Of a stretch of 64,000 nucleotides of DNA, positions 65-50,581 are shown in pieces. Below the pieces are notes generated by a model. The model was not told where the DNA came from. It saw only the letters and a program-made list of their open reading frames with translations, and ran no database searches. The stretch spans positions 1 through 64,000 of the forward strand of contig JAAHFP010000024.1 in assembly GCA_010672925.1 (NCBI GenBank), read 5' to 3'. Position numbers and translations under genes: made by a program. The first letter of the stretch is position 1. The number at the start of each line of letters is the position of its first letter. Source of the DNA: Symploca sp. SIO1C2. GTDB taxonomy: Bacteria > Cyanobacteriota > Cyanobacteriia > Cyanobacteriales > Coleofasciculaceae.

Positions 65-289
65 CTAAAACCAAAGAATTGGGGAGTATATATAAATAAA
101 GTTTATCAACATAGATCCGGGAGAGCCAGAATCCGGCTTCTTTTCCAATTTATCAACCGCGTCAATCAAATCACTTTCTGAACCAAATTTCTTCTTTAAA
201 GCTGATTTAAGACCATTGTAAGTATCCTTGATAACATCTTTGCTCAGATTAGCCAGAGCAGCGACAATAGCTGTTGTGATCACATCCAT
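65..289 (-). pseudogene. N-terminal fragment of a cyanobacterial helical hypothetical protein
   Basis: The 74-residue frame starts with an ATG at 289. Its first ~50 residues (MDVITTAIVAALANLSKDVI, then a Lys-rich helix with NGLKSALKKKFG) resemble the opening module of larger cyanobacterial proteins of unknown function, as I recall it. After the segment KLEKKPDSGS the frame runs into unrelated sequence and stops, so I read it as a 3'-truncated gene. No function can be assigned. It sits alone near the window edge, downstream of the polysaccharide locus. Confidence 0.4.
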
Positions 290-3499: not shown

Positions 3500-4840
3500 T
3501 TACAAAATCATTTCAATAGGAAGACCAAAACCTAAAATATTTCGACCCATGACCATAATAGCGATAAAGGCCAAAAGTGTTAAAGTAGCTAAAATGTCCT
3601 GCACAAAGCTATTAAGTCCTTCACGCCAAAGGCCATAACTGATAACTGCATATAAGGGCAGATCATTCAAGGCAACTACTGTAATTGCACCTAACTCTTG
3701 CTGCCAACGGAATCCTAGTGGTACTCCAACAATAACAAATATAAATTTGAAAAAGAAGCTAAATGCTAAATATTTACTTTTTCCAACTGCTAGCAGAGCC
3801 CCATCAATGGTCTTAGTTAAGAGTATAGGCCAAATTCCTAGAGCCAGAATAGGCATCATCCAGGATGCTTCAGCATAACGCTCATCGTATAACGTAGAAA
3901 TTAAAATATCCCCAAAGCTAACCAGTATTGCTAAAGCAAAGGCTGTGGGGAAAAGAATAAGCTTGCGGTTTTTCAAGATCTTAGCGCGAAGCTCAGGACG
4001 AGGAAGAGCAGCAGCCTTGGCAAATGCTGGAAAAATAACCTTGCCACTAACAGCCCCAATAACAGCACGGGGCAGCTGGGCGAGGTTAAAAGCAATACTA
4101 TAGACCCCTAAGAGTTGATCAGAAAACAACTTACCAAGTGTAAGTCGGTCAGACTGATCCGCCAGAAAAGTTAGGGCTGTAGAAATAAATATCCACCGAC
4201 CGAAAGAAAAGAGTTCTTGAGCAACTTCTTTATCCCAAGCAAAGCGATTAGAGTATCCAGGAATTAACCAATGACTCCACAACGCTTTAATTAATCCAGA
4301 AACGATGTTACCGCCAACGAGAGCCCAGATAGTGGGACTAAACGAAGCCCAAACAATCATTACTGCTATGGCAAGTGCTTGGCTTCCAAGCTCAAAAATG
4401 GCTATTTCACGAAGAGCTAAGTTGCGGTTGAGTGTGAATCTAGAAGTAGACTCGAACCCTGTCATAATTGTAGTTAGTCCGGCTACTGGGACTAACCACA
4501 GAAACTGAGGCTTGTCGTAAAACTGGGCAACTGGCCAAGCAAGCAGCAGCGAAGCAAACCAGAGAACAAAACCACGAATAACCTGCAAAGTCCAGGCCGT
4601 GTTGAGAAAAATTGGCTCATTTCCCCGTTTATTTTGAATTATGCTAGGGCCAACACCTGTATCGGAGAAAAGTTGCAGCCCGATGATAAAAATATTGACC
4701 AGAGTCATCACACCAAACAACTCTGGGACCAGTAGACGAGTCAAAATCAGGTTGGAACCAAATCGCAGAACCTGACCTGCTCCGAAACCTGCAATTGTCC
4801 AGAGTGAAGCAATAATGGCTTTCTTTTTGATAGATGACAT
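3500..4840 (-). CDS. Wzx-like polysaccharide flippase (MOP superfamily)
   Basis: About 446 residues with some 12 hydrophobic spans. The N-terminal half (IIASLWTIAGFGAGQVLRFG, then LILTRLLVPELFGVMTLVN) matches the PST/lipopolysaccharide exporters that flip lipid-linked repeat units across the inner membrane. The start taken is ATG 4840 (MSSIKKK); an upstream TTG at 4855 is in frame. It lies 47 bp downstream of a GT4 gene and upstream of the polymerase-like gene, giving a Wzx/Wzy-type set. No outer-membrane Wza-like gene is present in the window. Confidence 0.85.
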   Translation of the reverse strand: MSSIKKKAIIASLWTIAGFGAGQVLRFGSNLILTRLLVPELFGVMTLVNIFIIGLQLFSDTGVGPSIIQNKRGNEPIFLNTAWTLQVIRGFVLWFASLLLAWPVAQFYDKPQFLWLVPVAGLTTIMTGFESTSRFTLNRNLALREIAIFELGSQALAIAVMIVWASFSPTIWALVGGNIVSGLIKALWSHWLIPGYSNRFAWDKEVAQELFSFGRWIFISTALTFLADQSDRLTLGKLFSDQLLGVYSIAFNLAQLPRAVIGAVSGKVIFPAFAKAAALPRPELRAKILKNRKLILFPTAFALAILVSFGDILISTLYDERYAEASWMMPILALGIWPILLTKTIDGALLAVGKSKYLAFSFFFKFIFVIVGVPLGFRWQQELGAITVVALNDLPLYAVISYGLWREGLNSFVQDILATLTLLAFIAIMVMGRNILGFGLPIEMIL

Positions 4841-4887: not shown

Positions 4888-6138
4888 TTAGGCATCTATG
4901 AGAGCCTCACTGATTGTTGCTGGCTCCTGTAACTGCTGAGTTTCCGGTTGGAATAGCACTGCCAATTTGCGAGCTTCCCTAACTGCATCATGTTGCGCAG
5001 CCACTCGTTGAAATCCAGTTTTCCCCATCTGCTCTAGGTTTGCCACTGGCAACTGCAAGACATTACGCATAGCTGTGATTAAGGGTTCCACCGAACCAGC
5101 GGGCACTAACCAACCACAAATATCGGGCTCCACTAACTCTGGTATCCCAGCAATGTAAGTGCTGATTACGGGACGGTTCAACGCCAAGGCTTCCATAATG
5201 ACCACCGGCAAACCTTCGGCAAAGCTAGGTAGCACTAGAGCCCGTGAAGCTAAAATATGTTGTTGCACTGCTATGCTATCAGCCCAGCCGGTAATTTCAA
5301 TATGGTTTTGTAAATTGCGTTGGGCGATCAAGGCTTCAATTTCTTTTCGTAGAGGCCCATCGCCTACCAACACTAACTTAAATATTAAGCCTTCAGCTAC
5401 TAATTGACTCACGGCTTCCAGCAATAGCAGATGACCTTTCTGTTCAGAAAGCCGACCAACACAAACCAAGTTTGGCTGTTCCGGCACTGGGGTAGGGGAT
5501 TTGGTCAAAAATATCTGATCCACACCACAGTGAACTACATGAATTTTTGACCAATGCTCATACTCGCACCAGCGATAAAGCTGGCTTTTGCCGAAAGAAC
5601 TCACTGCTACCACAAAAGCCGCCCGCTTGATTTTCTCAGGCAAGGCAATCATTTGAGCTTTATCAAACTCTTCTGGACCATGAACGGTAAAGCTATAGGG
5701 AGGACCACCCAACACCTGGCACAACATCGCTACCGTGGTTGAATTGGTTCCAAAGTGAGCATGAACCTGGGTAATTTCTCGTTGGGAAAACCAACCCAAA
5801 AGAACACAGGCTTCAGCTAAATAGGCCAAATGATTGACAATTCCTCGCTCTGATTTTAAGCCAATTTTGAGGGTTAACCACAGAGCTCTCAAGAAGGGAA
5901 CGAGTCTAGTAAGGGCAACTCGGATTAAGCCTAAGAGCAAACCACCTATCCCGACATCTAAAACAACCCTAGTCTTCTCCAATTCTAGTTTGTCTGCCCC
6001 ATCCACCAACTCGGAGTCACAAGCGCGGATAGCAAACCGAGCAACTTTGATACCACAAGCTTCAAGCCCAGCAATCTCTCGCCGGATGAAGCTGTGGCTA
6101 ACCTTAGGATATTGATTAACTAAATAAGCAATTGTCAT
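4888..6138 (-). CDS. Glycosyltransferase family 4 (GT-B)
   Basis: A 416-residue GT-B enzyme. The N-terminal domain opens with MTIAYLVNQYPKVSHSFIRREI, the signature of the colanic-acid/exopolysaccharide GT4 subfamily; the C-terminal nucleotide-sugar domain shows VGRLSEQKGHLLLLEAV (about residues 227-243) and the E-x7-E region PSFAEGLPVVIMEALALNRP (about 306-325). The enzyme should be a cytoplasmic, membrane-associated retaining transferase acting on the lipid-linked unit. It belongs to the minus-strand polysaccharide operon, between the chain-length ATPase and the flippase. Confidence 0.88.
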   Translation of the reverse strand: MTIAYLVNQYPKVSHSFIRREIAGLEACGIKVARFAIRACDSELVDGADKLELEKTRVVLDVGIGGLLLGLIRVALTRLVPFLRALWLTLKIGLKSERGIVNHLAYLAEACVLLGWFSQREITQVHAHFGTNSTTVAMLCQVLGGPPYSFTVHGPEEFDKAQMIALPEKIKRAAFVVAVSSFGKSQLYRWCEYEHWSKIHVVHCGVDQIFLTKSPTPVPEQPNLVCVGRLSEQKGHLLLLEAVSQLVAEGLIFKLVLVGDGPLRKEIEALIAQRNLQNHIEITGWADSIAVQQHILASRALVLPSFAEGLPVVIMEALALNRPVISTYIAGIPELVEPDICGWLVPAGSVEPLITAMRNVLQLPVANLEQMGKTGFQRVAAQHDAVREARKLAVLFQPETQQLQEPATISEALIDA

Positions 6139-13952: not shown

Positions 13953-14690
13953 GTGGAACCTATTTGTATTCAAATTATCCAAGGAAATCCTCACTTGCGA
14001 TCGCTATTGGGTTGGCATTTGCAGCAAGCAGGCTATGGAGTCTATCAATCAGATAGTCTTGGTCAAGCCAAGCAAGCTTTCTTCCATCGTCAACCAATTC
14101 TGGTGATTCTAGACTCAGACTTACCAGATGGTGATGGTGTTGAGTTTTGCCAATGGCTCCAGGAGCAAAGACAGTCATTGATTTTGATGCTATCAGCTCG
14201 CAATACAGAAAGTGATATTGTCAGAGGGCTCAAGGCTGGGGCTGACGATTACTTAGTCAAGCCCTTCGGTATGCAAGAATTTATGGCTCGAGTGGAGGCA
14301 CTAATTAGACGTGTACGTTTGAATACTGCCCCACTCTCTTTGAACTATGGTGACCTCAAAATTGATTTAGTACAGCGTCGTGTATGTCTTAAGGGATACT
14401 TTATTGAACTGACACCTCAGGAATTTAGTTTGCTTTACGTACTAGCACAATCTGAAGGATTGCCCCTAAGCCGTTCGGAATTACTGCGTCGCGCTTGGCC
14501 TGATGCCATCGACAATCCCCGTACTATTGACACCCATGTTCTTTCCCTGCGCAAAAAAATCGAGACTGATCCTCGGCAACCCAACTTGATTCAAACTATC
14601 CGCAATGTAGGCTACCGGTTTAATCCAGAAATTATCCAAGGAAATCATGTACCAACGGAAGAACTAGCACAAGGAGGTAGGAGACTGTAA
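13953..14690 (+). CDS. OmpR-type response regulator with atypical receiver
   Basis: A 245-residue two-domain regulator: receiver (1-~118) and winged-helix DNA-binding domain (~130-230, with LTPQEFSLLYVLAQ and TIDTHVLSLRKKIE). The likely phosphoacceptor is Asp54 (VILDSDLPDGDG), with Ser/Thr (LMLSARN) and Lys (DDYLVKPFG) conserved. The acidic pair that binds Mg2+ after the first strand is missing: the sequence there is IQIIQGNPHL. The start is GTG 13953, preceded by GGGGAAG about 12 bp upstream. No histidine kinase is adjacent. The gene is followed by a convergent CAAD gene. I cannot assign it to NblR, RpaA or another named regulator. Confidence 0.85.
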   Translation: MEPICIQIIQGNPHLRSLLGWHLQQAGYGVYQSDSLGQAKQAFFHRQPILVILDSDLPDGDGVEFCQWLQEQRQSLILMLSARNTESDIVRGLKAGADDYLVKPFGMQEFMARVEALIRRVRLNTAPLSLNYGDLKIDLVQRRVCLKGYFIELTPQEFSLLYVLAQSEGLPLSRSELLRRAWPDAIDNPRTIDTHVLSLRKKIETDPRQPNLIQTIRNVGYRFNPEIIQGNHVPTEELAQGGRRL

Positions 14691-23130: not shown

Positions 23131-24999
23131 CTAGTATTTCCCAGCTTGTTGAGGACGTCCCCAAATAATCCTTTCTCTTTTGTAGACTGCCATACCTGGT
23201 TTAGCGCCCTTTGGCTTGTAGACGTACTTTGGCTTAGTATAGACAACTGGAACTTGTTCACTCTGACTCCCTTGGGAGTAATAGGCAGCAAAATCAGCAG
23301 CAAGCTGCAAATCTGCTTGCTCCGGTATAGTTCCTGGTTGTAAGCGAAGTAGGACATGGCTACCGGGAATCTCTTGAGTGTGAAACCAGATGTCGTAATC
23401 TCCTGCTATACGGAAGGTTAAGTGATCATTTTGCCGATTGTTACGACCAATATACAGTTCAAACCCATTGGGAGTTCGATACTTATAGGGCTCAGAGATA
23501 TTGTTGGAAGCACGAATTGGCTGTTTTGGGGCATCTAGATAATTTTGCTCAATTAATTCTGCACGGATTTCCTGTAGCGTTTGCAAATCTTCTGGTGCGC
23601 TGTAGATATCTGATATCTTCAAAAATGCTTTTACCTGCTCTAGATAGAGCATTTCTTCTTGTACTGCTTCGAGTAATGGCTTAACAGCAGAGTAAGCCCG
23701 TTTGAGCTTTTGGTGCAGTTTGTAGAGGGATTGGGCATTTTGGATAGCATTCTGGGTAGGATTTAAAGGAATCTTGACTGGCTGGTTAGTCTCGAAATCA
23801 GGTAAATTAATAGTCTGCATTCCTGGTTGCCAATGGTGCAGGTATGCCATCAATAAGTCAGCTTGTTGTCGGTGCTGGTCTGCTTGAGTCGATTGTTGCA
23901 AACGAGTTTCAAAAGTAGAAGCTTTTTGAGCTAATTTCTTGAGAAGATTGCTTAGCTTCTGACTTAGTTGGTGGTGCAAGCGAGCGAATTCTTGTTGATT
24001 TAGCTCACCAGTGTAATAGTCATTGAGTAAATTTTGGAGATTCTGAGCTGGCTTAACCATGTCCCAGGCCATAACAGTATATCCCTGGTCTGTCCAACCT
24101 GGTTGAAAGTTTTGGTTGTTGGTTGTTTGTTGTTGGTTGTTTGTTATTTGTCCTTGGTCATTTGTTGTTTGCCCCTTGTCACCCTTGTCCCCCTTGTCCC
24201 CCTTGTCACCCTTGTCCCCCTTGTCCCCCTTGTCCCCCCACACTCCCCCCATCTCCCCATCTCCTTCCAGGGTTTGCAGCCATTGTTGCCAACACAGAAA
24301 TAAATCTTGCCAGTCAGAGGTTGTAAGGTCTTCAGTGGATTGGTTAGGATCGAGGCTAGCAGCTTGCACCATGGAACGTACTAAGGCTGGACTCAAGCCT
24401 CGGTAACTTTTGATTAGCTGACGCTGTAGGGGTCCTGGAACTAAACTGACTCTTTCTTGCCAGCGCTGTTGAGATTCGTTTAATTTGGGTAATGTACCAG
24501 TAAGAGAAGGGGGTGGTTCATAAGGTTGGCCAGTTTGAATAGAACGGATGCTAGATTGTTGAGAACCAACTTGATGGGCAGCAGTAACAATCAGATTGTC
24601 GGCACTGGTAAGGATAACATTACTGTATTTGCCCATAATTTCTACATATAGATGCCAGATGGCAGCTTCTCCGGGGCGTTGAGCAAACTGCAAGTCTAAT
24701 ACCCGCTCCCAAGGTGCGATGATTTCCATCCCGACTAAGGCAAAGCCACCTAATTGATGCCGCAATTGATCACTGAAGGTAAAGGTGTCGGGTAAGCGGG
24801 GAGGGGCATCGCCAATACAAATTCTCGCGGCTTGGGGATGCCAAGAAATCGTGAGCCAGCCCCGACTTTTCAGGGTTCGTAAGTTGAGGGCAATTGTGTA
24901 GCGATCGCGTTGATAAACTGTGGTAGTACGTGCTGGTATCCAATCCTTACGTAGCTCACAGCAAGCAGCCATTAAGGTAGTAAAGTCAACTGTTTGCAT
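23131..24999 (-). CDS. NFACT/RqcH-like protein (fibronectin-binding A family)
   Basis: A 622-residue protein with NFACT-N (1-~210), a long coiled coil (~320-450) and NFACT-R (~490-600; [35 protein letters not shown]). RqcH proteins bind stalled 50S subunits and tag nascent chains with alanine. The usual Asp-Arg pair of NFACT-N seems to be Glu-Arg here ([15 protein letters not shown]). Residues ~256-276 are a Gly-Asp-Lys repeat coded by a STRR, followed by an Asn/Gln/Thr tract ([19 protein letters not shown]), both likely surface loops. Confidence 0.85.
24116..24240. repeat. In-frame tandem repeats inside the NFACT gene
   Basis: Nine-base units (CCCTTGTCC and CCCTTGTCA) at about 24177-24236 code for Gly-Asp-Lys, and TTGTTTG-type repeats at 24116-24175 code for Thr-Asn-Asn/Gln. 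The reading frame is kept through both. Confidence 0.9.
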
Positions 25000-39711: not shown

Positions 39712-40926
39712 CTAGTTAACAGATTTTTGTAGAGGACTTTGCATCAGGCTACGCATCTGCTGAATATCAGCTAAAACTGCATTTAGCCTACTCTGCCGTA
39801 ACTCTAGGGATAGGTTGGGTTCTTTAACTAGGTTCACCAGAGATATTTGGATGGTGGATAGGAGAGTAGAAAGTTGTTGGTGTGTCGTATCAGTCCATTG
39901 ATTATAGTTACCACTAATAACTTCCAGCTTTGGTGGAGAATTTACACATTGAGGCTCTAGGGGTTTTGATGGAACATTGCCGTTTTGTAGGCGTTCCACT
40001 TCCAGTTGCTGGACTGTTTGTTGTAGAGTTTCTACTATGCCATACATCTCCATCGGGTCAAATACTCGTAGTAGGCTAGTCTGAGTAACGATACCTAGCC
40101 TTTGTCCCCAATTCCAAGACACAACTAAGCGTCGTACATGCCGCTGTTGCATTTCTTGATGAGCAGTCCATAAGGAATCTTCGGGACTCAGAATAAATAG
40201 AGGTGTACTCATAACTACCTGAGCTTCCGTTGTGAACAGATTTAGCTGTAAAGACTGAAATTGTACGATATCTCGCTCAGTGACAATCCCTACCGGCAGC
40301 AATCGCTCCTTTTCATCTTCCTCGGTGATTACGACACAACTAACTCGTTGTTGGGTCATCAACTGCGCTAAACTTAACACGGAAGCAGTCAATGGAGCAT
40401 GGACTACTTCGCGACTCATAACCTCTGACACCCGCCGCAACTTGAGGAGGTTTGCCGGACGTAATACCCGACGTATACTTTCTGGGGAGACTATACCAAC
40501 TAATTTACCGTAATCGTCCACAATCGGTAGGTGACGAATCCGATAGCGACGAAACAGAAATAGAGCAGCGAAGATATCCTGAGCAGCAGCTTGAGGTAAG
40601 GTAACTATTGGGTGTATCATGACTTCCCTCACCTTCACCCCAGAAAAATTCGTACCATTAGCTGTAAGCTTGACAATATCCCGCTCTGTAAAGATACCCA
40701 ACAATCGTTCATCTTGCATTACTAAGACACAACTAGAGCGAGTACTAGTAATTGGTGCGGCATCTGATAGGGAGTCCAAATTAGGCAGTGAGCAACTGCT
40801 GCCTCGTGCCTGACTGATTAAAGCGATTACTTCTACTAGCAGCGTTTCCGGTGCAACAATAAGGGGATGAAAATCAATTGCGTCTTCTAAGGCTGGAGCA
40901 TGGATGAGGGGATTGTCATTTGTCAT
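39712..40926 (-). CDS. Four-CBS-domain protein
   Basis: About 404 residues made of two Bateman modules: CBS1 (IDFHPLIVAPETLLVEVIAL to IFTERDIV), CBS2 (VREVMIHPIVTLPQAAAQDI), CBS3 (VSEVMSREVVHAPLTASVLS, VGIVTERDIVQ) and CBS4 (AQVVMSTPLFILSPEDSLWT), with a long helical tail. Similar modules head many cyanobacterial sensor kinases; here no kinase follows. ATG 40926 (MTNDNPLI) is preferred; the GTG at 41031 would translate a STRR. It should bind adenine nucleotides. Confidence 0.82.
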   Translation of the reverse strand: MTNDNPLIHAPALEDAIDFHPLIVAPETLLVEVIALISQARGSSCSLPNLDSLSDAAPITSTRSSCVLVMQDERLLGIFTERDIVKLTANGTNFSGVKVREVMIHPIVTLPQAAAQDIFAALFLFRRYRIRHLPIVDDYGKLVGIVSPESIRRVLRPANLLKLRRVSEVMSREVVHAPLTASVLSLAQLMTQQRVSCVVITEEDEKERLLPVGIVTERDIVQFQSLQLNLFTTEAQVVMSTPLFILSPEDSLWTAHQEMQQRHVRRLVVSWNWGQRLGIVTQTSLLRVFDPMEMYGIVETLQQTVQQLEVERLQNGNVPSKPLEPQCVNSPPKLEVISGNYNQWTDTTHQQLSTLLSTIQISLVNLVKEPNLSLELRQSRLNAVLADIQQMRSLMQSPLQKSVN

Positions 40927-41451
40927 TTGTTGTTTGTTGTTGGTTGTTTGTTGTTGGGAATTGGGCATTGGGAATTGGGAATTGGGAATTGGGAATATTC
41001 TTTTATTTCTCCATCCTCTCTGTCTCCCCACACTCCTCTATCTTCCTTGTCCCCACATCCCTTACACAATCTCCGCTTCATTGCTCAAAAGACGGATGTT
41101 ACACTGAAGCAAGCTCAAAGTTTTGAAAAATATTTACATTAAACCTGCATAGGTATATTATAAGGAAAAGTTACATTTACAGGTAATGTAAAGATTACAT
41201 TGCAATTATTGTAGCGAAAAAGAAGTTATGGCAAGCTACTTGCCTAGTTGTGCTTGACCACACATGGGTAAGTCTTTGTGGCTACCAGCGTAGATTGGGA
41301 CAAAATTAAAGACTACGATTAGCTCCGGTCATTAGAGGTTATGATGCTTGCTTTTTAGAAAGAGCCCACTTTAATTTGGTAGCCTTATTTTTCTATATAG
41401 GAAATTACAAGCAAATAAATTGTCTAAGTTGTTGTATTCAAGTTGTATGTT
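40927..41451. other. Intergenic region with STRR and TTACATT repeats
   Basis: 40934-41000 is a STRR (TGTTGTT and GGGAATT units). At 41171-41201 TTACATT occurs twice with an inverted copy between (AATGTAA at 41185), similar to HLR1-type half-sites. No gene is seen to 41451. Confidence 0.5.
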
Positions 41452-41832
41452 TTACTTCCCCTGCTCCGAAGCTCCCTGGATAGGAGTTTTTATCACGCCA
41501 GAGACTCCGGAGACTCTAGGGGTTTTTCCATAAAGTCTGTCGAGAACCCGTTTAACTGAAATTCTTTTCCACTGGTAACCACGTTTGGTTTTGTGTCCCT
41601 GTTGATTGAGCCAATCAGCTATCTGCTGTAGTGATTTACCAGATTTGTGGTGACGGCGAATTAACTCAATCACCTGCTGCTCTAATTGGTTGTCTACTAA
41701 TTCACCATCTAGGGATTGTTGACCAAAAGCTGGGGAACCGTAACCGGCATAACCACCCTGAGCAGCTTTCGCTCTGCGACCTTTTTCTAGTCTTTCAGTA
41801 ACTGTGTACCAGTTTAACTCTTCAGCAGCCAT
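41452..41832 (-). pseudogene. Serine recombinase C-terminal (recombinase domain) fragment
   Basis: A 126-residue protein with the recombinase-domain pattern GRRAKAAQGGYAGYGSPAFG, QVIELIRRHHKSGKSLQQIA and WLNQQGHKTKRGYQWKRISV, ending in KRVLDRLYG. Large serine recombinases carry this after an N-terminal catalytic domain; here that domain, with its Ser and Arg residues, is absent. It is either a truncated integrase or a free-standing DNA-binding domain, as seen in other cyanobacteria. It is divergent from the adenylate-kinase-like gene, 57 bp apart. Confidence 0.65.
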
Positions 41833-41889
41833 AACTATTTTAGTTCAACAACTTTATTTGGTAGTTTATCAATTCTTAAATCATAAGTA

Positions 41890-42459
41890 ATGCGATTAAT
41901 CTTTCTCGGACCTTTTGGAGCAGGTAAGGAAACCCAAGCCGCTATTTTAGCTGAGTACTGGCAGATTCCCTATTTGGCTATTGGTGATATTTTACGTCAG
42001 GCGATCGCCCAAGAAACATTTTTGGGTTTGAAAGCTCAAAGTTTCATGAAGCAAGGAAAGTTAGTCCCAGATCCTCTATTCATTGAACTCCTTCGCCAGC
42101 GTTTGAACCAACCCGATGCTAGAAGAGGTTGGGTACTAGACGGATTTCCCCGAAATTTATCCCAGGCTCAGGCTTTAGAACAGCTGTTACAAGAAATTGG
42201 TCAACGCTATGATTGGGTAATCAATTTTGAAGTTTCTCTCAATACCTTAGTCAAGAGAATGTTAGGACAAGGTGACCAAAATTATCCTCAAGCCAAACTA
42301 GGTCAGAGTCTAGAAGCTTATCCTAAACAGACTGCTCCCATCAACTTAATTGAATTTTACCAGAGCCGCCATTGCCTGAAGACGATTGATGGTAATCTCT
42401 CAGGAACTTCTGTAACTCTTAGCTTACAGGAACTGCTGGACCTTCAAGTCGCAGTTTGA
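41890..42459 (+). CDS. Degenerate adenylate kinase paralogue
   Basis: A 189-residue protein clearly related to the adk at 43042 (IFLGP-GAGK, VLDGFPRNLSQAQALEQLLQ). Its P-loop is GPFGAGKETQ rather than GPPGAGKGTQ, and the lid/AMP region reads MLGQGDQNYPQAKLGQSLEA, losing the arginines found in the neighbour (EAIIRRRLEVY). The C-terminal SRHCLKTIDGNLSG is kept. It may have lost catalysis and serve as a binding protein, or be decaying. 582 bp separate it from the second copy, with a small gene between. Confidence 0.75.
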   Translation: MRLIFLGPFGAGKETQAAILAEYWQIPYLAIGDILRQAIAQETFLGLKAQSFMKQGKLVPDPLFIELLRQRLNQPDARRGWVLDGFPRNLSQAQALEQLLQEIGQRYDWVINFEVSLNTLVKRMLGQGDQNYPQAKLGQSLEAYPKQTAPINLIEFYQSRHCLKTIDGNLSGTSVTLSLQELLDLQVAV

Positions 42460-42521
42460 AGCACTCTTCAAAGTTTCTTTTTTATCTGCACCACAGCAGT
42501 AGTGGCGTGACACATCTAAAA

Positions 42522-42602
42522 ATGTAGGTTGGGGGTCACGCTAGTGAAACCCAACAAAGCCTTGCTGGTGTTGGGTCTCGTTGCCTCGACCCAACCTATC
42601 CA
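42522..42602. repeat. Hairpin repeat (TAGGTTGGG / CCCAACCTA)
   Basis: Outer arms TAGGTTGGG and CCCAACCTA enclose an inner GTTGGGT/ACCCAAC pair. Such elements occur dispersed in cyanobacterial genomes; here one sits in the 293-bp gap after the degenerate kinase. Confidence 0.7.
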
Positions 42603-42752
42603 ATAGAGGGATGTTACACCTAAAGAGGTTAAAATGCTTAATTAGTATAGACAAGAGACTCTTAAAGGTGTACACTGAGGAATGTTACAAGAAAGGGAGG
42701 CGAAACTCTCTTCAGATAAGATTTTAAATTGTTTTAGGGTGTGCATCAAATT

Positions 42753-42983
42753 ATGGATTACAAAAAAATGGCAGGATTAGCCAGTGAAGTTGAACCCAAC
42801 TTGATGGCAATCATCGCTGAATTTAACAGCACCCTCAAAAAGCATGGTGTATCGAATGCCAGAGTGGTTGAGTTTACTCTCAGTGATAACGAATCTCCAG
42901 AAATGGAAGGACTGGTTTGTAATTTTGCCTGCTGGATTGATCGAGGAGATCTTTCCTGCGGTGTCAGATGTCAATTTGAGTAA
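42753..42983 (+). CDS. Small hypothetical protein
   Basis: A 76-residue acidic protein (MDYKKMAGLASEVEPNLMAI...). I do not recognise it. The N-terminus is helical and the C-terminus (GLVCNFACWIDRGDLSCGVR) has three cysteines. GTG 42741 is an alternative start. It lies 58 bp before adk on the same strand. Confidence 0.5.
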   Translation: MDYKKMAGLASEVEPNLMAIIAEFNSTLKKHGVSNARVVEFTLSDNESPEMEGLVCNFACWIDRGDLSCGVRCQFE

Positions 42984-43041
42984 CACCAGCGTAATCTCTG
43001 GTTAATTGAGCAACAGTCCCATTAAAACCAATTTAACGATA

Positions 43042-43605
43042 ATGCGATTAATTTTTCTCGGACCTCCCGGTGCTGGAAAAGGAACCCAGGCAGCAATTTT
43101 AGCCAACCTGTGGCAAATTCCTCATATTTCTACTGGTGATATTTTAAGACAAGCAATCGCAGGAAAAACCTCCTTAGGTATACAAGCCAAAGCTCATGTC
43201 GATGCAGGAGAACTAGTTCCTAATATCCTCATAATGGCCATGATACGAGAGCGTTTTGGTCAACGAGATACGGAAAAAGGCTGGATTTTGGATGGATTTC
43301 CCCGAAATATATCTCAGGCAGATGCCCTAGATCAACTACTACAAATCATGAGACAGCCTTATGGTTTTGCAGTCAACTTTACAGTTCCCACTGATATTTT
43401 AGTGGAGAGAATGTTAGGTCGAGGTCGTCAGGATGATAATGAAGCAATTATTCGTCGGCGTTTAGAAGTTTATCACGAGCAAACAGCTCCTTTAATTGAG
43501 TTTTACCAGCGTCGCCAATGCCTCAAAACTATTGATGCTAATCTTCCTGTTGAGCAGGTGACTAATATGTTGCAGGAGTCCCTACGGCAGCCTGTAGAGG
43601 TTTAA
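43042..43605 (+). CDS. adk: Adenylate kinase (short lid)
   Basis: A 187-residue kinase that equilibrates ATP + AMP with two ADP. P-loop GPPGAGKGTQ (~7-16), STGDILRQAI (AMP site, ~30-39), WILDGFPRNISQADALDQLL (~78-97) and the arginines RMLGRGRQDDNEAIIRRRLE (~119-138) are complete. The lid is short, as in cyanobacteria. Start ATG 43042 is preferred over TTG 43006. It sits 100-130 bp before the ferredoxin gene. Confidence 0.9.
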   Translation: MRLIFLGPPGAGKGTQAAILANLWQIPHISTGDILRQAIAGKTSLGIQAKAHVDAGELVPNILIMAMIRERFGQRDTEKGWILDGFPRNISQADALDQLLQIMRQPYGFAVNFTVPTDILVERMLGRGRQDDNEAIIRRRLEVYHEQTAPLIEFYQRRQCLKTIDANLPVEQVTNMLQESLRQPVEV

Positions 43606-43734
43606 ACAACTGTAAAAGCTTTCCTTTACTCGGTCTTGGTGTTAGCCAAAGCTATATTTTTTGGACCATACAAGAGCAGATAGCTTATCTGCTTATCTAT
43701 CAAATTGTCTTAATCATACAAGGAGTATTTTTCC

Positions 43735-44031
43735 ATGGCAACTTACAAAGTTAGACTAGTCAACGAAGCGGTCGGACTCGACAAAACTATTGAAGTTCCT
43801 GATGACCAATATATAGTCGATGCTGCTGAAGAACAGGAAATTGACTTGCCTGTATCCTGTCGTTCAGGTTCTTGTTCTACCTGTGTTGGCAAGATTACTG
43901 CCGGGAAAGTGGATCAATCAGATCAAGTTTTCTTAGATGATGACCAAATTGCTGCTGGTTTTGTTCTAACCTGTGTAGCTTACCCTGCTTCTGACTGCAC
44001 TATTCAAACTGATCAAGAAGACCAGCTTTAG
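43735..44031 (+). CDS. Plant-type [2Fe-2S] ferredoxin
   Basis: A 98-residue ferredoxin. The cluster cysteines are Cys42, Cys47, Cys50 ([13 protein letters not shown]) and Cys80 (VLTCVAYP). The binding loop [10 protein letters not shown] resembles the FdxH/fdx2 type more than PetF (which I recall as AGACSTCAGK), so it may serve a special partner. The stop TAG lies in the first unit of a heptamer repeat. The neighbouring thioredoxin suggests a redox unit, though no ferredoxin-thioredoxin reductase is here. Confidence 0.9.
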
Positions 44032-44062
44032 GTATTAGGTATTAGGTATTAGGTGTTAGGTT
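44029..44062. repeat. Heptamer repeat (TTAGGTA) at the ferredoxin stop
   Basis: Four copies of TTAGGTA or TTAGGTG; the stop codon TAG of the ferredoxin gene is part of the first copy. Confidence 0.9.
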
Positions 44063-44172
44063 TTTATACCTGTGGTATACCTACTCATAGCCTCTTTGTC
44101 TTGCACGATAGTTGATAACTGAATCAATAGCAAACTACACTTAATTTCACATTCAAGAGAAAAGTAATAATC

Positions 44173-44499
44173 ATGACTACAGCACCTCAAATCCAAGAAA
44201 GTGAATTTAACGAACTTTTGACCTACGGAGGACCAGTTGTCGTTGACTGTACGGCAACTTGGTGTGGCCCTTGCCGTAAAGTTAGTCCTTTAATCGATCA
44301 ACTAGCAGAGAAGTATCAAGGTCGTGCAAAAGTAGTCAAGCTCGACATTGAAAAAAACCAAGAAACTCCTAAAAAATATGGTGTTCGTAGCATTCCTGCT
44401 GTTCTAATTTTTAAGAGTGGTGAGTTGGTAGAACATCTAGTGGGTGCTAAGCCTTACGAAGAGTTCAGTAGTGCAGTTGATAAGTACCTTGAAACTTGA
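44173..44499 (+). CDS. trxA: Thioredoxin (WCGPC)
   Basis: A 108-residue thioredoxin with the active site TATWCGPCRKVSP (~30-42), VKLDIEKNQETPKKYGVRSI and the cis-Pro loop SIPAVLIFKSGE. It reduces disulfides of target enzymes; CP12 proteins are classic targets and two CBS-CP12 genes lie 0.5-2 kb downstream. A GAGAAAAG ribosome-binding site lies 10 bp upstream. Family member (m, x, A type) cannot be fixed. Confidence 0.9.
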   Translation: MTTAPQIQESEFNELLTYGGPVVVDCTATWCGPCRKVSPLIDQLAEKYQGRAKVVKLDIEKNQETPKKYGVRSIPAVLIFKSGELVEHLVGAKPYEEFSSAVDKYLET

Positions 44500-44538
44500 T
44501 GAATACCGATGTTAATTGAATTGTAAGATTCTACTATC

Positions 44539-44850
44539 ATGCAGACAAATCAAGTAGTCCGATGTCCCAATTGTGGTAGTTTTGCTGAGCGTCGCTACTT
44601 TAGCAGTACTGAAGCAAAATATAGTTCCTGTCCTGGAAATCAAATTACTCAAACTGAGTGTGCCGCATGTGATTATTTTATGGTTATGTGCTCTTTAAGC
44701 GGCAGTGTTTTAGAGGCATATGCGCCAGGGATGAGCGCTCCAATTAGTGCGAGGAAATTAAACCATCTGCACTGTAACCACAATCCAACTCTATTCCCCA
44801 AGAAGTTGACCACTATATATCCAAATGTAAGCAGCAGTGTTAGCGCCTGA
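44539..44850 (+). CDS. Small zinc-ribbon protein
   Basis: A 103-residue protein with two CxxC pairs (RCPNCGSFAER at ~8-18 and TECAACDYFMVMC at ~39-51), a minimal zinc ribbon. Similar small cyanobacterial proteins are sometimes mislabelled PriA. The last 35 residues, with HLHC and Asn/Ser, look atypical. It follows thioredoxin by 39 bp on the same strand. Function unknown. Confidence 0.65.
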   Translation: MQTNQVVRCPNCGSFAERRYFSSTEAKYSSCPGNQITQTECAACDYFMVMCSLSGSVLEAYAPGMSAPISARKLNHLHCNHNPTLFPKKLTTIYPNVSSSVSA

Positions 44851-44925
44851 GTGTGAAGTTATAGCAGTAGTTTAAACGAAAGATAACTGAAGTTTGAGCC
44901 AGGGTATTCAAAGGAGACAATAGCC

Positions 44926-45381
44926 ATGATGAAAGCTGAAGAAATAATGACTCAGGGGGTAGTAACTATTAGTGGTTCAGCAACAGTTGCTGAGGCAGTT
45001 GCACGGATGAAAGAGAAAAATTTACGTGCCTTAATTGTCGAGCGCCGCACTGATAGTGACCCCTATGGTATGGTTACCGAAACCGATATTATCTACAAAG
45101 TCGCTGCTTATGGATATGACCCCAAACAAATGCGAGTGTATGAGATAATGACCAAGCCCTGCATTGTGGTCAATCCTGATTTGGGAGTAGAATATGTCGC
45201 GAGGTTGTTTGCTAATACTCGTATCCGTAGGGCTCCAGTAGTCCAAGGCAATTTGCTAGGGGTAGTCTCGATTAGTGATATTCTCAAAAAGAGTGATTTT
45301 GTCGAGAAGCCAAAAAACAATTTTGAGCTTTACTGTGATGAGAACCCCAGTGCACTTGAGGCGCGGATGTATGAAGATTAA
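44926..45381 (+). CDS. CBS-domain protein with degraded CP12 tail
   Basis: A 151-residue protein: two CBS motifs (1-~128), nearly identical to the next gene, followed by a 21-residue tail NNFELYCDENPSALEARMYE. In the neighbour the matching tail is MKQYCDDNPDAPECRIYED, preceded by a full CP12 core. Here ~55 residues of CP12 are missing and the last Cys is Ala, so the C-terminal CP12 disulfide cannot form. Start ATG 44926 has GGAGACA upstream. Probably an AMP-binding sensor without CP12 function. Confidence 0.85.
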   Translation: MMKAEEIMTQGVVTISGSATVAEAVARMKEKNLRALIVERRTDSDPYGMVTETDIIYKVAAYGYDPKQMRVYEIMTKPCIVVNPDLGVEYVARLFANTRIRRAPVVQGNLLGVVSISDILKKSDFVEKPKNNFELYCDENPSALEARMYED

Positions 45382-45793
45382 TCTTGGCTCAAGAGCTGAG
45401 TAAATTTTCCAGAAAATTGATAGAACTATTGGTGAGGTGGTGCAATTCTACCTCACTTACCGTTAAATGACCTATCAATCTTTGCCCTTCTAATCTGAAA
45501 ATAGGAGTCACCGAGTCAGGAGTCACCGAGCCAGGAGAGAAAGATTTTCATCCATTGTTGTGAGCTTATGCTCATGGGAGTCTGATTTTAAAGTAGAAGC
45601 GGAGACGGGTCGAGAGGGATTTTCAGGCATGGTGGTGAAAATTTTTTTTTCATCGCGACTGCCTTAGAGCCTTTTGCTATAAGTAGCATAATCAAAATTA
45701 GTGATCGCGCCTTTCCAGTTATCATTTATTGATGATTAGTACAAACAACAAACAACAAATTACAAACAACAAATTACAAAGGAGGTTGTCACT
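45382..45793. other. Intergenic repeats between CBS and CBS-CP12 genes
   Basis: The 412-bp gap holds the CTAATCTGAAAATAG segment (45493), a hairpin-bearing segment TTTTCAGGCATGGTGGTGAAA (45623) related to 22.98 and 48.39 kb, and AACAACAAATTACAA repeats before a GGAGG ribosome-binding site at 45781. No gene. Confidence 0.6.
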
Positions 45794-46411
45794 ATGATGA
45801 AAGCTAAAGATATTATGACCAAGGATGTAGTCACCATCCGTGGTTCAGCAACGGTTGCTGAAGCAGTAGCACTAATGAAAGATAAGAATCTACGTGCTTT
45901 GATTGTCGAGCGCCGCAGTAATAATGACCCCTATGGTATTATTTCCGAAACTGACATTGTCTACAAGGTAGCTGCTTATGGACATGACCCGAAGCAGATG
46001 CGAGTCTATGAAATTATGACCAAGCCTTGTATTGTCGTGAATCCGGACTTAGGTGTGGAGTATGTAGCACGCTTATTTGCTAATACTCGTATTCGTCGGG
46101 CTCCTGTGATTGAAGGCAAGTTGCTAGGTGTCATCTCAGTTAGTGATATCCTCAAGAAGAGCGACTTCGTAGAAAAACCGAAAAGAATTTACCTTGAGGA
46201 TGAAGTAGAAGCGGCTCGTGAAGAGGCCAGAACTATTTGTGAATCGAAAGGTGCAACTTCTCCAGAATGTGCTGCGGCTTGGGATACAGTGGAAGAACTT
46301 CAAGCAGAAGCTGCTCATCAGCGCTCAGCAAAACAGGATCAATCTTCTTCCATGAAACAATACTGCGATGATAATCCAGATGCACCAGAGTGTCGCATTT
46401 ACGAAGATTAG
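45794..46411 (+). CDS. CBS-CP12 fusion protein
   Basis: A 205-residue fusion: a CBS pair (1-~128) and a full CP12 domain (~133-205) with the N-terminal cysteine pair ICESKGATSPEC, the conserved core AAWDTVEELQAEA and the C-terminal pair YCDDNPDAPECRIYED. CP12 binds GAPDH and phosphoribulokinase when oxidised and shuts down the Calvin cycle; the CBS part senses adenine nucleotides in related proteins. Thioredoxin is encoded 1.3 kb upstream. Strong Shine-Dalgarno GGAGG. This is the intact member of a tandem pair. Confidence 0.93.
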   Translation: MMKAKDIMTKDVVTIRGSATVAEAVALMKDKNLRALIVERRSNNDPYGIISETDIVYKVAAYGHDPKQMRVYEIMTKPCIVVNPDLGVEYVARLFANTRIRRAPVIEGKLLGVISVSDILKKSDFVEKPKRIYLEDEVEAAREEARTICESKGATSPECAAAWDTVEELQAEAAHQRSAKQDQSSSMKQYCDDNPDAPECRIYED

Positions 46412-49975: not shown

Positions 49976-50581
49976 ATTCTTAATTCGACCTTCTCCATTC
50001 CCAATTTTCTCTAAAATCTCTTGATTTACTTCTTCTGGCGACTGGTTGCCATTGATAGTTAGTAGCCGGTAGCGATATCCATAGTACTCCAGGATAGGAA
50101 CGGTACGCTCATGGAACAAATCAATACGGCGCTGTACAATTTCCGGGTGATTGTCAGGTCGAGAATCAGCCTGAGAGACTTTACTGCCTAGATTACTCAA
50201 TTTCCCAATACAGCGATCGCTCATTACTGATTCTGATACCTCCAGGTAAATTGCCCAATCGAGTTTTTGCTGCAACTTCTCTAGTAAAAAATCTAACTCC
50301 TCTGCCTGGAAAGCAGTACGAGGATAGCCTTCTAGCAACCAACCCCTAGCAGTATCAGATTGTAAAAGACGCTCCCGCATAAATTCGATAAGTAGTGTAT
50401 CCGGCACTAACTCTCCCTTTTCCACATAGGGCTGTACCTGAAGTCCTAAATCAGATTGGGAAGCGATCGCTTCTCGCAATATATCACCAGTGGAAACTAA
50501 AGGGATACTCTGCTGTTGGCACAATTTTTGTGATTGTGTACCTTTCCCCGCACCCGGACCTCCTAGAATCACCAGTCTCAC
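49973..50581 (-). CDS. adk: Third adenylate kinase paralogue
   Basis: A 202-residue member: P-loop GGPGAGKGTQ (~7-16), STGDILREAI, but the usual DGFPRT is EGYPRT (LLEGYPRTAFQAEELDFLL) and the lid is short (IGKLSNLGSKVSQADSRPDN). It keeps the arginine in IVQRRIDLFHERT. The final residues (GNGEGRIKN) come from repeat DNA. It is divergent from the other two copies (41.9 and 43.0 kb) and could act on another nucleoside monophosphate. It is 46 bp downstream of the rph gene. Confidence 0.85.
   Translation of the reverse strand: MRLVILGGPGAGKGTQSQKLCQQQSIPLVSTGDILREAIASQSDLGLQVQPYVEKGELVPDTLLIEFMRERLLQSDTARGWLLEGYPRTAFQAEELDFLLEKLQQKLDWAIYLEVSESVMSDRCIGKLSNLGSKVSQADSRPDNHPEIVQRRIDLFHERTVPILEYYGYRYRLLTINGNQSPEEVNQEILEKIGNGEGRIKN

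What the first reader, a model, noticed from the sequence alone, without database searches (positions are those of the whole stretch)
41890..46411. Adenylate/redox island: kinases, ferredoxin, thioredoxin, CBS-CP12
Within 4.6 kb lie two adenylate-kinase genes, ferredoxin, thioredoxin, a zinc ribbon, and two CBS-CP12 genes, all on the plus strand. Adenylate kinase sets AMP, CBS domains bind AMP/ATP, and CP12 is switched by thioredoxin to shut the Calvin cycle. This grouping might be an energy-plus-redox sensing unit for carbon fixation. The idea is inference.
Basis: inference. Interest (0 to 1): 0.6.

Follow-up and report, generated by a model that had tools for sequence, protein, structure and literature searches.

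The report
Split CP12 in a redox/AMP cluster
A group of neighbouring cyanobacterial genes that probably tunes carbon fixation to the cell's energy and redox state is real and widely conserved, and in many species its regulator CP12 has been cut into two halves carried by two sister proteins.

Summary
The island is real and belongs to a conserved cluster: divergent CBS4–Rec, then (adenylate kinase)–(ferredoxin)–thioredoxin–(zinc ribbon)–CBS-CP12/CBSt. Two corrections: the first "CBS-CP12" (CBSt) carries only the last 24 residues of CP12, with one cysteine; and the first adenylate kinase has lost P-loop and LID residues expected to be needed for catalysis.

The full-length neighbour is homologous over its whole length to Microcystis CBS-CP12 (PDB 5NMU), reported to bind AMP and restrain thioredoxin activation of phosphoribulokinase. 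That CBS-CP12 clusters with trxA is, as I recall, published (paper not held).

Not found in the held library: in 23 of 46 classified two-gene loci the CBS-CP12 partner ends near CP12 profile position 46 of 70, while CBSt in most lineages supplies 47–70. CP12 is thus split over two tandem CBS proteins, probably several times. The cluster thioredoxin forms its own clade; cluster adenylate kinases lost key residues in two lineages; the divergent promoter gap carries a recurrent AGTYTATCAA motif. Function is inferred from sequence and papers; nothing was measured.

The parts
39712..41031 (-). CBS4: protein with four CBS domains; start codon uncertain
   Evidence: Pfam CBS, 4 stretches; CBS4 within 6.5 kb of Rec in 52 of 64 Rec loci
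41452..41832 (-). Rec: stand-alone DNA-binding domain of the serine-recombinase kind, no catalytic domain; candidate regulator
   Evidence: Pfam Recombinase 3-50/102; model with mean pLDDT 70 whose best Foldseek hits are large serine recombinases, best E 8e-3
41863..41872 (+). AGTTTATCAA, candidate operator in the 57-bp Rec/AK1 gap
   Evidence: motif AGTYTATCAA exact in 9 of 43 such gaps, shuffles mean 0.07, max 1
41890..42459 (+). AK1: adenylate-kinase homolog, probably catalytically dead
   Evidence: below NCBIfam adk cut-off; lost P-loop Gly, pre-LID Arg, LID Arg/Asp; dN/dS 0.225 against G001
42741..42983 (+). orf80: open frame without family match; possibly not a gene
   Evidence: no Pfam or NCBIfam hit
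43042..43605 (+). AK2: adenylate kinase with the tabulated catalytic residues intact
   Evidence: (271.7 bits, cut-off 262)
43735..44031 (+). plant-type [2Fe-2S] ferredoxin
   Evidence: TIGR02008; outside the clade of the two highest-scoring genomic ferredoxins L296/L299, support weak
44173..44499 (+). thioredoxin, WCGPC, of a cluster-specific clade
   Evidence: TIGR01068; tree 99/98
44539..44850 (+). zinc-ribbon-like protein of an undescribed cyanobacterial family
44926..45381 (+). CBSt: CBS pair plus only the C-terminal 24 residues of CP12 (one Cys)
   Evidence: Pfam CP12 47-70/70; at least 31 near-full-length matches in 30 of 388 genomes, capped list; dN/dS 0.067 against G001
45794..46411 (+). 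CBS-CP12, full length, both Cys pairs and AWD core
   Evidence: Pfam CP12 1-70/70; 5NMU E 2.7e-100

Best explanation
This is a conserved redox- and adenylate-sensing module of the CBS-CP12 type, most likely acting on phosphoribulokinase and so on carbon fixation. CBS-CP12 senses AMP through its CBS pair and redox state through the cysteine pairs of CP12. The neighbouring thioredoxin is its likely reducing partner, perhaps fed by the cluster ferredoxin. CBSt is a second subunit type on the same CBS scaffold that keeps only CP12's C-terminal hook; it probably co-assembles or competes with CBS-CP12. In half of the two-gene loci classified the partner has dropped its own C-terminal part, so the halves of CP12 are divided between two proteins. 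Rec, divergent across a short gap with a recurrent motif, is the likely transcriptional regulator. Adenylate kinase is an optional accessory that has lost catalytic residues in two lineages. Shown by sequence: gene content, order, residue losses, split, clades, motif. Taken from papers: AMP binding, hexamer and PRK effect of the Microcystis protein. Inferred: heteromers, electron path, Rec as regulator, effect on carbon fixation in this organism.
For: Gene order recurs in many families. Of 64 Rec loci, 52 have CBS4, 52 Trx, 36 zinc ribbon, 35 CBS-CP12, 28 CBSt, 27 Fdx, 20 AK within 6.5 kb. A Microcystis cluster CBS-CP12 aligns with 5NMU over all 205 residues with 2 differences, one at the start residue. 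Tail-bearing CBS-CP12 genes carry the C-terminal Cys pair in 34 of 38 cluster cases against 3 of 35 outside. CBSt: dN/dS 0.067; tail positions F133, Y136, P141, A143, E145, Y149 invariant in 14 sequences, and the CBS motif residues G48, T53, D54, G112, S115, D118 too (that these bind nucleotide is recalled). Split: N-half genes end at CP12 position 45-47 in 4 of 4 scanned, CBSt starts at 47. Trx clade 99/98. Motif.
Against: No expression or binding data. Intergenic gaps inside the island run from 39 to 582 bp and a terminator-like site lies just after CBSt (such sites are no more frequent than in shuffles), so one transcript is not shown. Trx was not detected in six loci that have Rec and CBSt (L157, L158, L161, L162, L165, L192). 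5 of 78 distinct cluster Trx sequences show no CxxC in the scanned stretch. Rec also occurs without CBS-CP12 or CBSt in many genomes. CBSt lacks the second C-terminal Cys, so GAPDH binding of the canonical kind is doubtful. A review states that modelling argues against GAPDH binding by CBS-CP12 fusions (PMC3906501). A Synechococcus 7002 CBS-CP12 could not replace CP12 in Synechocystis (PMC9514657).
Confidence: 0.6

Rival explanations
1. CBSt and the N-half CBS-CP12 are independent regulators. CBSt lost the PRK-binding half and became a plain AMP-binding CBS protein whose tail has another partner or none; the two do not form heteromers.
For: CBSt lacks the second Cys, and in one Leptolyngbya/Adonisia group its tail is degraded beyond Pfam recognition. 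Five cluster loci have an N-half gene and no CBSt.
Against: The tail is highly conserved in most lineages. N-half genes are commoner beside CBSt (23 of 46) than elsewhere (6 of 56). The CBS regions of the two genes often group by lineage, as expected if they must stay compatible, although repeated duplication gives the same tree.
Confidence: 0.4
2. CBSt competes with or dilutes CBS-CP12: it joins or titrates the CBS assembly without a PRK-binding half and so attenuates the AMP-dependent brake on PRK.
For: Same CBS scaffold with intact nucleotide-site residues, no CP12 N-half; gene pair side by side in most CBSt clusters.
Against: It does not explain why a conserved C-terminal hook is kept, nor why partners lose theirs.
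Confidence: 0.25
3. The target is not the Calvin cycle: the cluster regulates another pathway (for example glycolysis, fermentation or oxidative stress) and CP12 parts were co-opted.
For: No Calvin-cycle enzyme gene was labelled near the clusters, but only window genes were used as labels. Canonical CP12 is present elsewhere in the own genome. CBS-CP12 cannot replace CP12 in Synechocystis.
Against: The crystallised ortholog acts on PRK activation (PMC9406205).
Confidence: 0.25
4. The adenylate kinases are passengers in decay after duplication and have no role in the module.
For: Nostocales cluster kinases show raised dN/dS (0.30-0.71 in 5 of 5 pairs compared, some with few changes); a kinase is absent from 44 of 64 Rec loci.
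Against: AK1 has dN/dS 0.225 and no stops; intact kinases stay at the head of clusters in several families; the Rec/AK gap is short, 42-60 bp in the window and six families or genera.
Confidence: 0.35

Closest known systems
CBS-CP12 fusion family (Hackenberg et al. 2018; PDB 5NMU, 5NPL, 5NVD) and its gene cluster with trxA
   Same: The full-length window protein matches 5NMU over its whole length; a thioredoxin gene is in the cluster; a Microcystis cluster gene is nearly identical to the crystallised protein.
   Different: The window adds CBSt, a degenerate and an intact adenylate kinase, ferredoxin and zinc ribbon. Whether the 2018 paper shows these neighbours could not be checked: it is not held, its abstract is recalled.
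Eight CP12 classes of Stanley et al. 2013
   Same: Full-length cluster proteins fit the N/C-CBS class; non-cluster ones mostly the N-CBS class, as the classes are described in PMC3906501.
   Different: CBSt has neither core nor N-pair and is truncated; N-half proteins end after the core. Whether the class '0-CBS' covers CBSt could not be checked.
Adenylate kinase 3 of Chlamydomonas with a CP12-like tail (PMC9406205)
   Same: Links adenylate kinase to a CP12-type C-terminal hook.
   Different: There one fused protein; here separate neighbouring genes, the hook sits on a CBS protein and lacks the second Cys.
Plant CBSX proteins
   Same: CBS pair proposed to act on thioredoxins (PMC3906501).
   Different: No CP12 part; PMC7921703 (passages) found no effect of CBSX with AMP on Trx f/m-dependent reduction of three enzymes in vitro.

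Membership tests
CBS-CP12 (gene 45794-46411) | two CBS domains followed by a complete CP12 domain | tested here: met
   Pfam CBS x2 and CP12 1-70/70; 5NMU match over 2-205
CBS-CP12 (gene 45794-46411) | AMP binding, hexamer, effect on PRK | not testable with these tools
   known only for the Microcystis protein, from a review
CBS-CP12 (gene 44926-45381, CBSt) | complete CP12 domain with core and Cys pairs | tested here: not met
   CP12 47-70/70 only, one C-terminal Cys, no core
Adenylate kinase (AK1) | P-loop GxPGxGKGT, GFPR, pre-LID and LID arginines | tested here: not met
   GFPR kept; P-loop GKET; pre-LID and LID Arg lost
Adenylate kinase (AK2) | same residues | tested here: met
   activity not tested
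Thioredoxin | thioredoxin family with WCGPC | tested here: met
   TIGR01068 above cut-off
Large serine recombinase (Rec) | catalytic resolvase domain besides the DNA-binding recombinase domain | tested here: not met
   126 aa; only the Recombinase domain and HTH models match

The most novel reading that the evidence does not exclude
CP12 has been split. CBSt and CBS-CP12 co-assemble through their CBS domains, so that a heteromer gated by AMP and the cluster thioredoxin rebuilds CP12 in trans: the PRK-associated half comes from one subunit and the GAPDH-type hook from the other. Such complementary splitting arose several times in cyanobacteria; the window shows the intermediate state in which one partner is still whole.
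Probability: 0.25. Interest if true: 0.78.

Novelty: new variant of a known kind. Interest (0 to 1): 0.58.

Why it matters
CP12 is the textbook redox switch of carbon fixation. A natural division of it between two AMP-sensing CBS proteins, beside a thioredoxin of their own clade, would show how cyanobacteria tie energy charge to the Calvin cycle and offers a ready separation of CP12's two functional halves for experiment. It also says what the 'second CBS-CP12' of such genomes is.

Tried and rejected
Rejected: that AK and ferredoxin are special to this genus. The first synteny look suggested it; the wider sets show them in other families. Rejected: that the missing C-half of the partner is a frameshift or assembly artefact. 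0 of 28 N-half genes have a recognisable remnant in the 240 bp downstream, while L033, with an in-frame stop, does; no classified gene was flagged as running off a contig end.

Limits. The first CBS tree had badly trimmed rows; I repeated it with a fixed trim and cite that one, whose bootstrap had not settled and which has few columns for its rows. An earlier automatic count of N-half genes wrongly included L042, L125 and L173, which keep a tail; one search is the count used. Counts are of distinct proteins (identical ones counted once) and the loci are related by descent, so the Fisher p of 1.7e-05 is not a true probability. The motif was found and tested on overlapping sets of sequences. dN/dS is a simple pairwise count. 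The 80 named loci were chosen by similarity to CBSt and over-represent the cluster; match lists were capped. The ferredoxin tree does not settle whether cluster ferredoxins are one clade. The Rec model is of modest quality and no Foldseek hit is below E 0.001. Hackenberg 2018 and Stanley 2013 are not held; the trxA gene cluster is recalled from the 2018 abstract.
Full report
WHAT IS THERE. The unit is larger: upstream and divergent lie Rec, a stand-alone DNA-binding domain of the serine-recombinase kind, and CBS4, a protein with four CBS domains. The gap between Rec and AK1 is 57 bp.

CONSERVATION. In G001 the order is CBS4, Rec, AK1, Fdx, Trx, CBSt, CBS-CP12, without AK2 and the zinc ribbon. 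In two genomes of the same family it is CBS4, Rec, Trx, zinc ribbon, CBSt; in a genome of another family CBS4, Rec, Trx, CBSt, CBS-CP12. A search with CBSt over 388 genomes of the order lists 31 near-full-length matches in 30 genomes (capped list, so at least). Their surroundings show the same cluster in most cases, with AK, Fdx and zinc ribbon coming and going and some rearrangement. Named carriers include Xenococcus PCC 7305 (rearranged), Hyella, Calothrix parasitica NIES-267, Anabaenopsis, Sphaerospermopsis, Cuspidothrix, Dolichospermum, Leptolyngbya PCC 7375 (no Trx found), Acaryochloris MAGs, Prochloron didemni and Microcystis (the last two without CBSt). Anchored on Rec instead, 64 Rec loci were tabulated, out of 79 matches of at least 111 bits that I count; the 15 left out are 10 Microcystis genomes not fetched and 5 others not fetched, not detected or not entered. 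Within 6.5 kb: CBS4 52, Trx 52, zinc ribbon 36, CBS-CP12 35, CBSt 28, Fdx 27, AK 20 of 64. The loci are not independent by descent. Rec with CBS4 and Trx also occurs without CBS-CP12, and some Rec loci have none of the labelled genes, so the nucleus of the cluster may be Rec-CBS4-Trx.

THE SPLIT. CBSt has a CBS pair and only CP12 profile positions 47-70. In most lineages its tail reads F-x-x-Y-C-x-x-x-P-x-A-x-E-A-R-x-Y, and between the window and G001 the gene is under strong purifying selection (dN/dS 0.067). Among distinct CBS-CP12 genes classified, the 46 with CBSt in the same locus split evenly: 23 keep the C-terminal part and 23 end 11-21 residues after the AWD core; complete genes have 33 or more, with nothing between. 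Four of the short ones scanned cover CP12 positions 1-45, 1-47, 1-46 and 1-46. Without CBSt in the locus, 5 of 20 cluster genes and 1 of 36 non-cluster genes are short. The last is L033, with an in-frame stop and a remnant behind it. Of the five, L169 has an ISL3-type transposase-like ORF between Trx and CBS-CP12, where CBSt lies in relatives; the other four are Nostocales whose relatives keep CBSt. On the CBS-region tree the short form needs 8 label changes, at least 7 forced by well-supported branches; CBSt needs 17, at least 8 forced. So either both forms arose repeatedly, or gene conversion keeps the CBS parts of the two genes alike. In a Leptolyngbya/Adonisia group the CBSt tail is degraded and no longer matches Pfam CP12, so complementation is not exact there. 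The window shows the intermediate state: CBSt beside a complete CBS-CP12.

CYSTEINES AND THIOREDOXIN. CBS-CP12 genes that keep the tail carry the C-terminal Cys pair in 34 of 38 cluster cases and in 3 of 35 cases outside. Cluster thioredoxins (25 of 78 distinct sequences were put in the tree) form one clade (99/98) apart from 14 paralogs of three genomes. The redox-complete form thus travels with a thioredoxin of its own clade. Against this, Trx was not found in six loci that have Rec and CBSt; in five of them, the Leptolyngbya/Adonisia ones, the CBSt tail has also lost its last cysteine.

ADENYLATE KINASES. The genome has four homologs: a best-scoring copy on contig C112, AK1, AK2, and a third type at 50078-50569 on the minus strand of the window. 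AK1 lost the P-loop Gly, the pre-LID Arg, the LID Arg and LID Asp residues, and in this genome also the last LID Arg; its G001 ortholog shares the P-loop, pre-LID and LID Arg losses. Yet dN/dS between them is 0.225. In Nostocales cluster kinases the GFPR arginine is Gly or Ser in 13 of 13 examined (10, 3 more); it is intact in 17 of 17 housekeeping copies and in the other cluster kinases tabulated, AK1 included. AK1, its ortholog and seven intact cluster kinases form one group (94/86); L087, L093 and the Nostocales ones lie elsewhere. That these residues are needed for catalysis is recalled, not measured here. 'Kinase sets AMP' may hold for AK2, hardly for AK1.

REGULATION. In 43 non-redundant Rec/operon gaps AGTYTATCAA occurs exactly in 9 (shuffles mean 0.07, max 1) and with at most one mismatch in 17 (mean 1.2, max 4), counted on one strand; on both strands the counts are the same against means of 0.1 and 1.85. 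Many carriers are related, and 26 of 43 gaps lack it. The model of Rec (mean pLDDT 70) has large serine recombinases as its best Foldseek matches, best E 8e-3. That Rec binds the motif is inference.

WHAT IS KNOWN. PMC9406205 (passages) reports Microcystis CBS-CP12 as light-induced, hexameric, AMP-binding and inhibiting PRK activation by thioredoxins, and mentions adenylate kinase 3 of Chlamydomonas with a CP12-like tail. PMC3906501 (passages) describes eight CP12 classes, three with CBS, and modelling that argues against GAPDH binding by the fusions. PMC9514657 (passages) reports that a CBS-CP12 cannot replace CP12. PMC3060824 (passages) lists two Microcystis CBS/CP12 proteins that change with light and microcystin status. 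PMC7921703 (passages) found no effect of plant CBSX with AMP on thioredoxin-dependent reduction in vitro. PMC9025218, PMC10070481, PMC9199185, PMC7281370 and PMC9623430 mention CBS-CP12 only in a reference in the passages shown, and PMC11257934 does not mention CBS. The original papers of 2013 and 2018 are not held; I recall that the 2018 abstract describes gene clusters with trxA. Searches for the split form or the adenylate-kinase link gave listings in which no title or abstract start names either; most subscription papers are outside the library.

VERDICT. The new element is the complementary splitting of CP12 over two tandem CBS proteins, plus erosion of cluster kinases and a divergent candidate regulator with a candidate operator.

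Noticed in passing
window 50078-50569 (-): A further adenylate-kinase homolog of a distant third type with a longer LID stretch, also in G001; about 4 kb downstream of the island.
   Followed up: partly
window 100-109, 14039-14048, 24910-24919 (-): AGTYTATCAA occurs four times in the window against 0.39 expected; these three sites outside the Rec/AK1 gap were not examined and might mark a regulon or a mobile element.
   Followed up: no
L033 (G003) 3531-4100: A lone CBS-CP12 gene has an in-frame stop before its C-terminal part, whose remnant is still readable downstream.
   Followed up: partly
L169 7307-7753: An ORF with ISL3-transposase zinc-finger and HTH matches sits between Trx and the N-half CBS-CP12, where CBSt lies in relatives.
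   Followed up: partly
L091 7079-7414: A cluster thioredoxin whose active site reads LCGC instead of WCGPC.
   Followed up: no
window 44539-44850 and loci: The zinc-ribbon protein has mostly shorter paralogs elsewhere; 252 of 388 genomes of the order have a match.
   Followed up: no
L032 (G002) 4960-5128: In the third genome of the genus a CBS-CP12 gene appears to lack its middle (matches to residues 1-39 and 187-205 next to each other), at a small contig; deletion or assembly fault.
   Followed up: no
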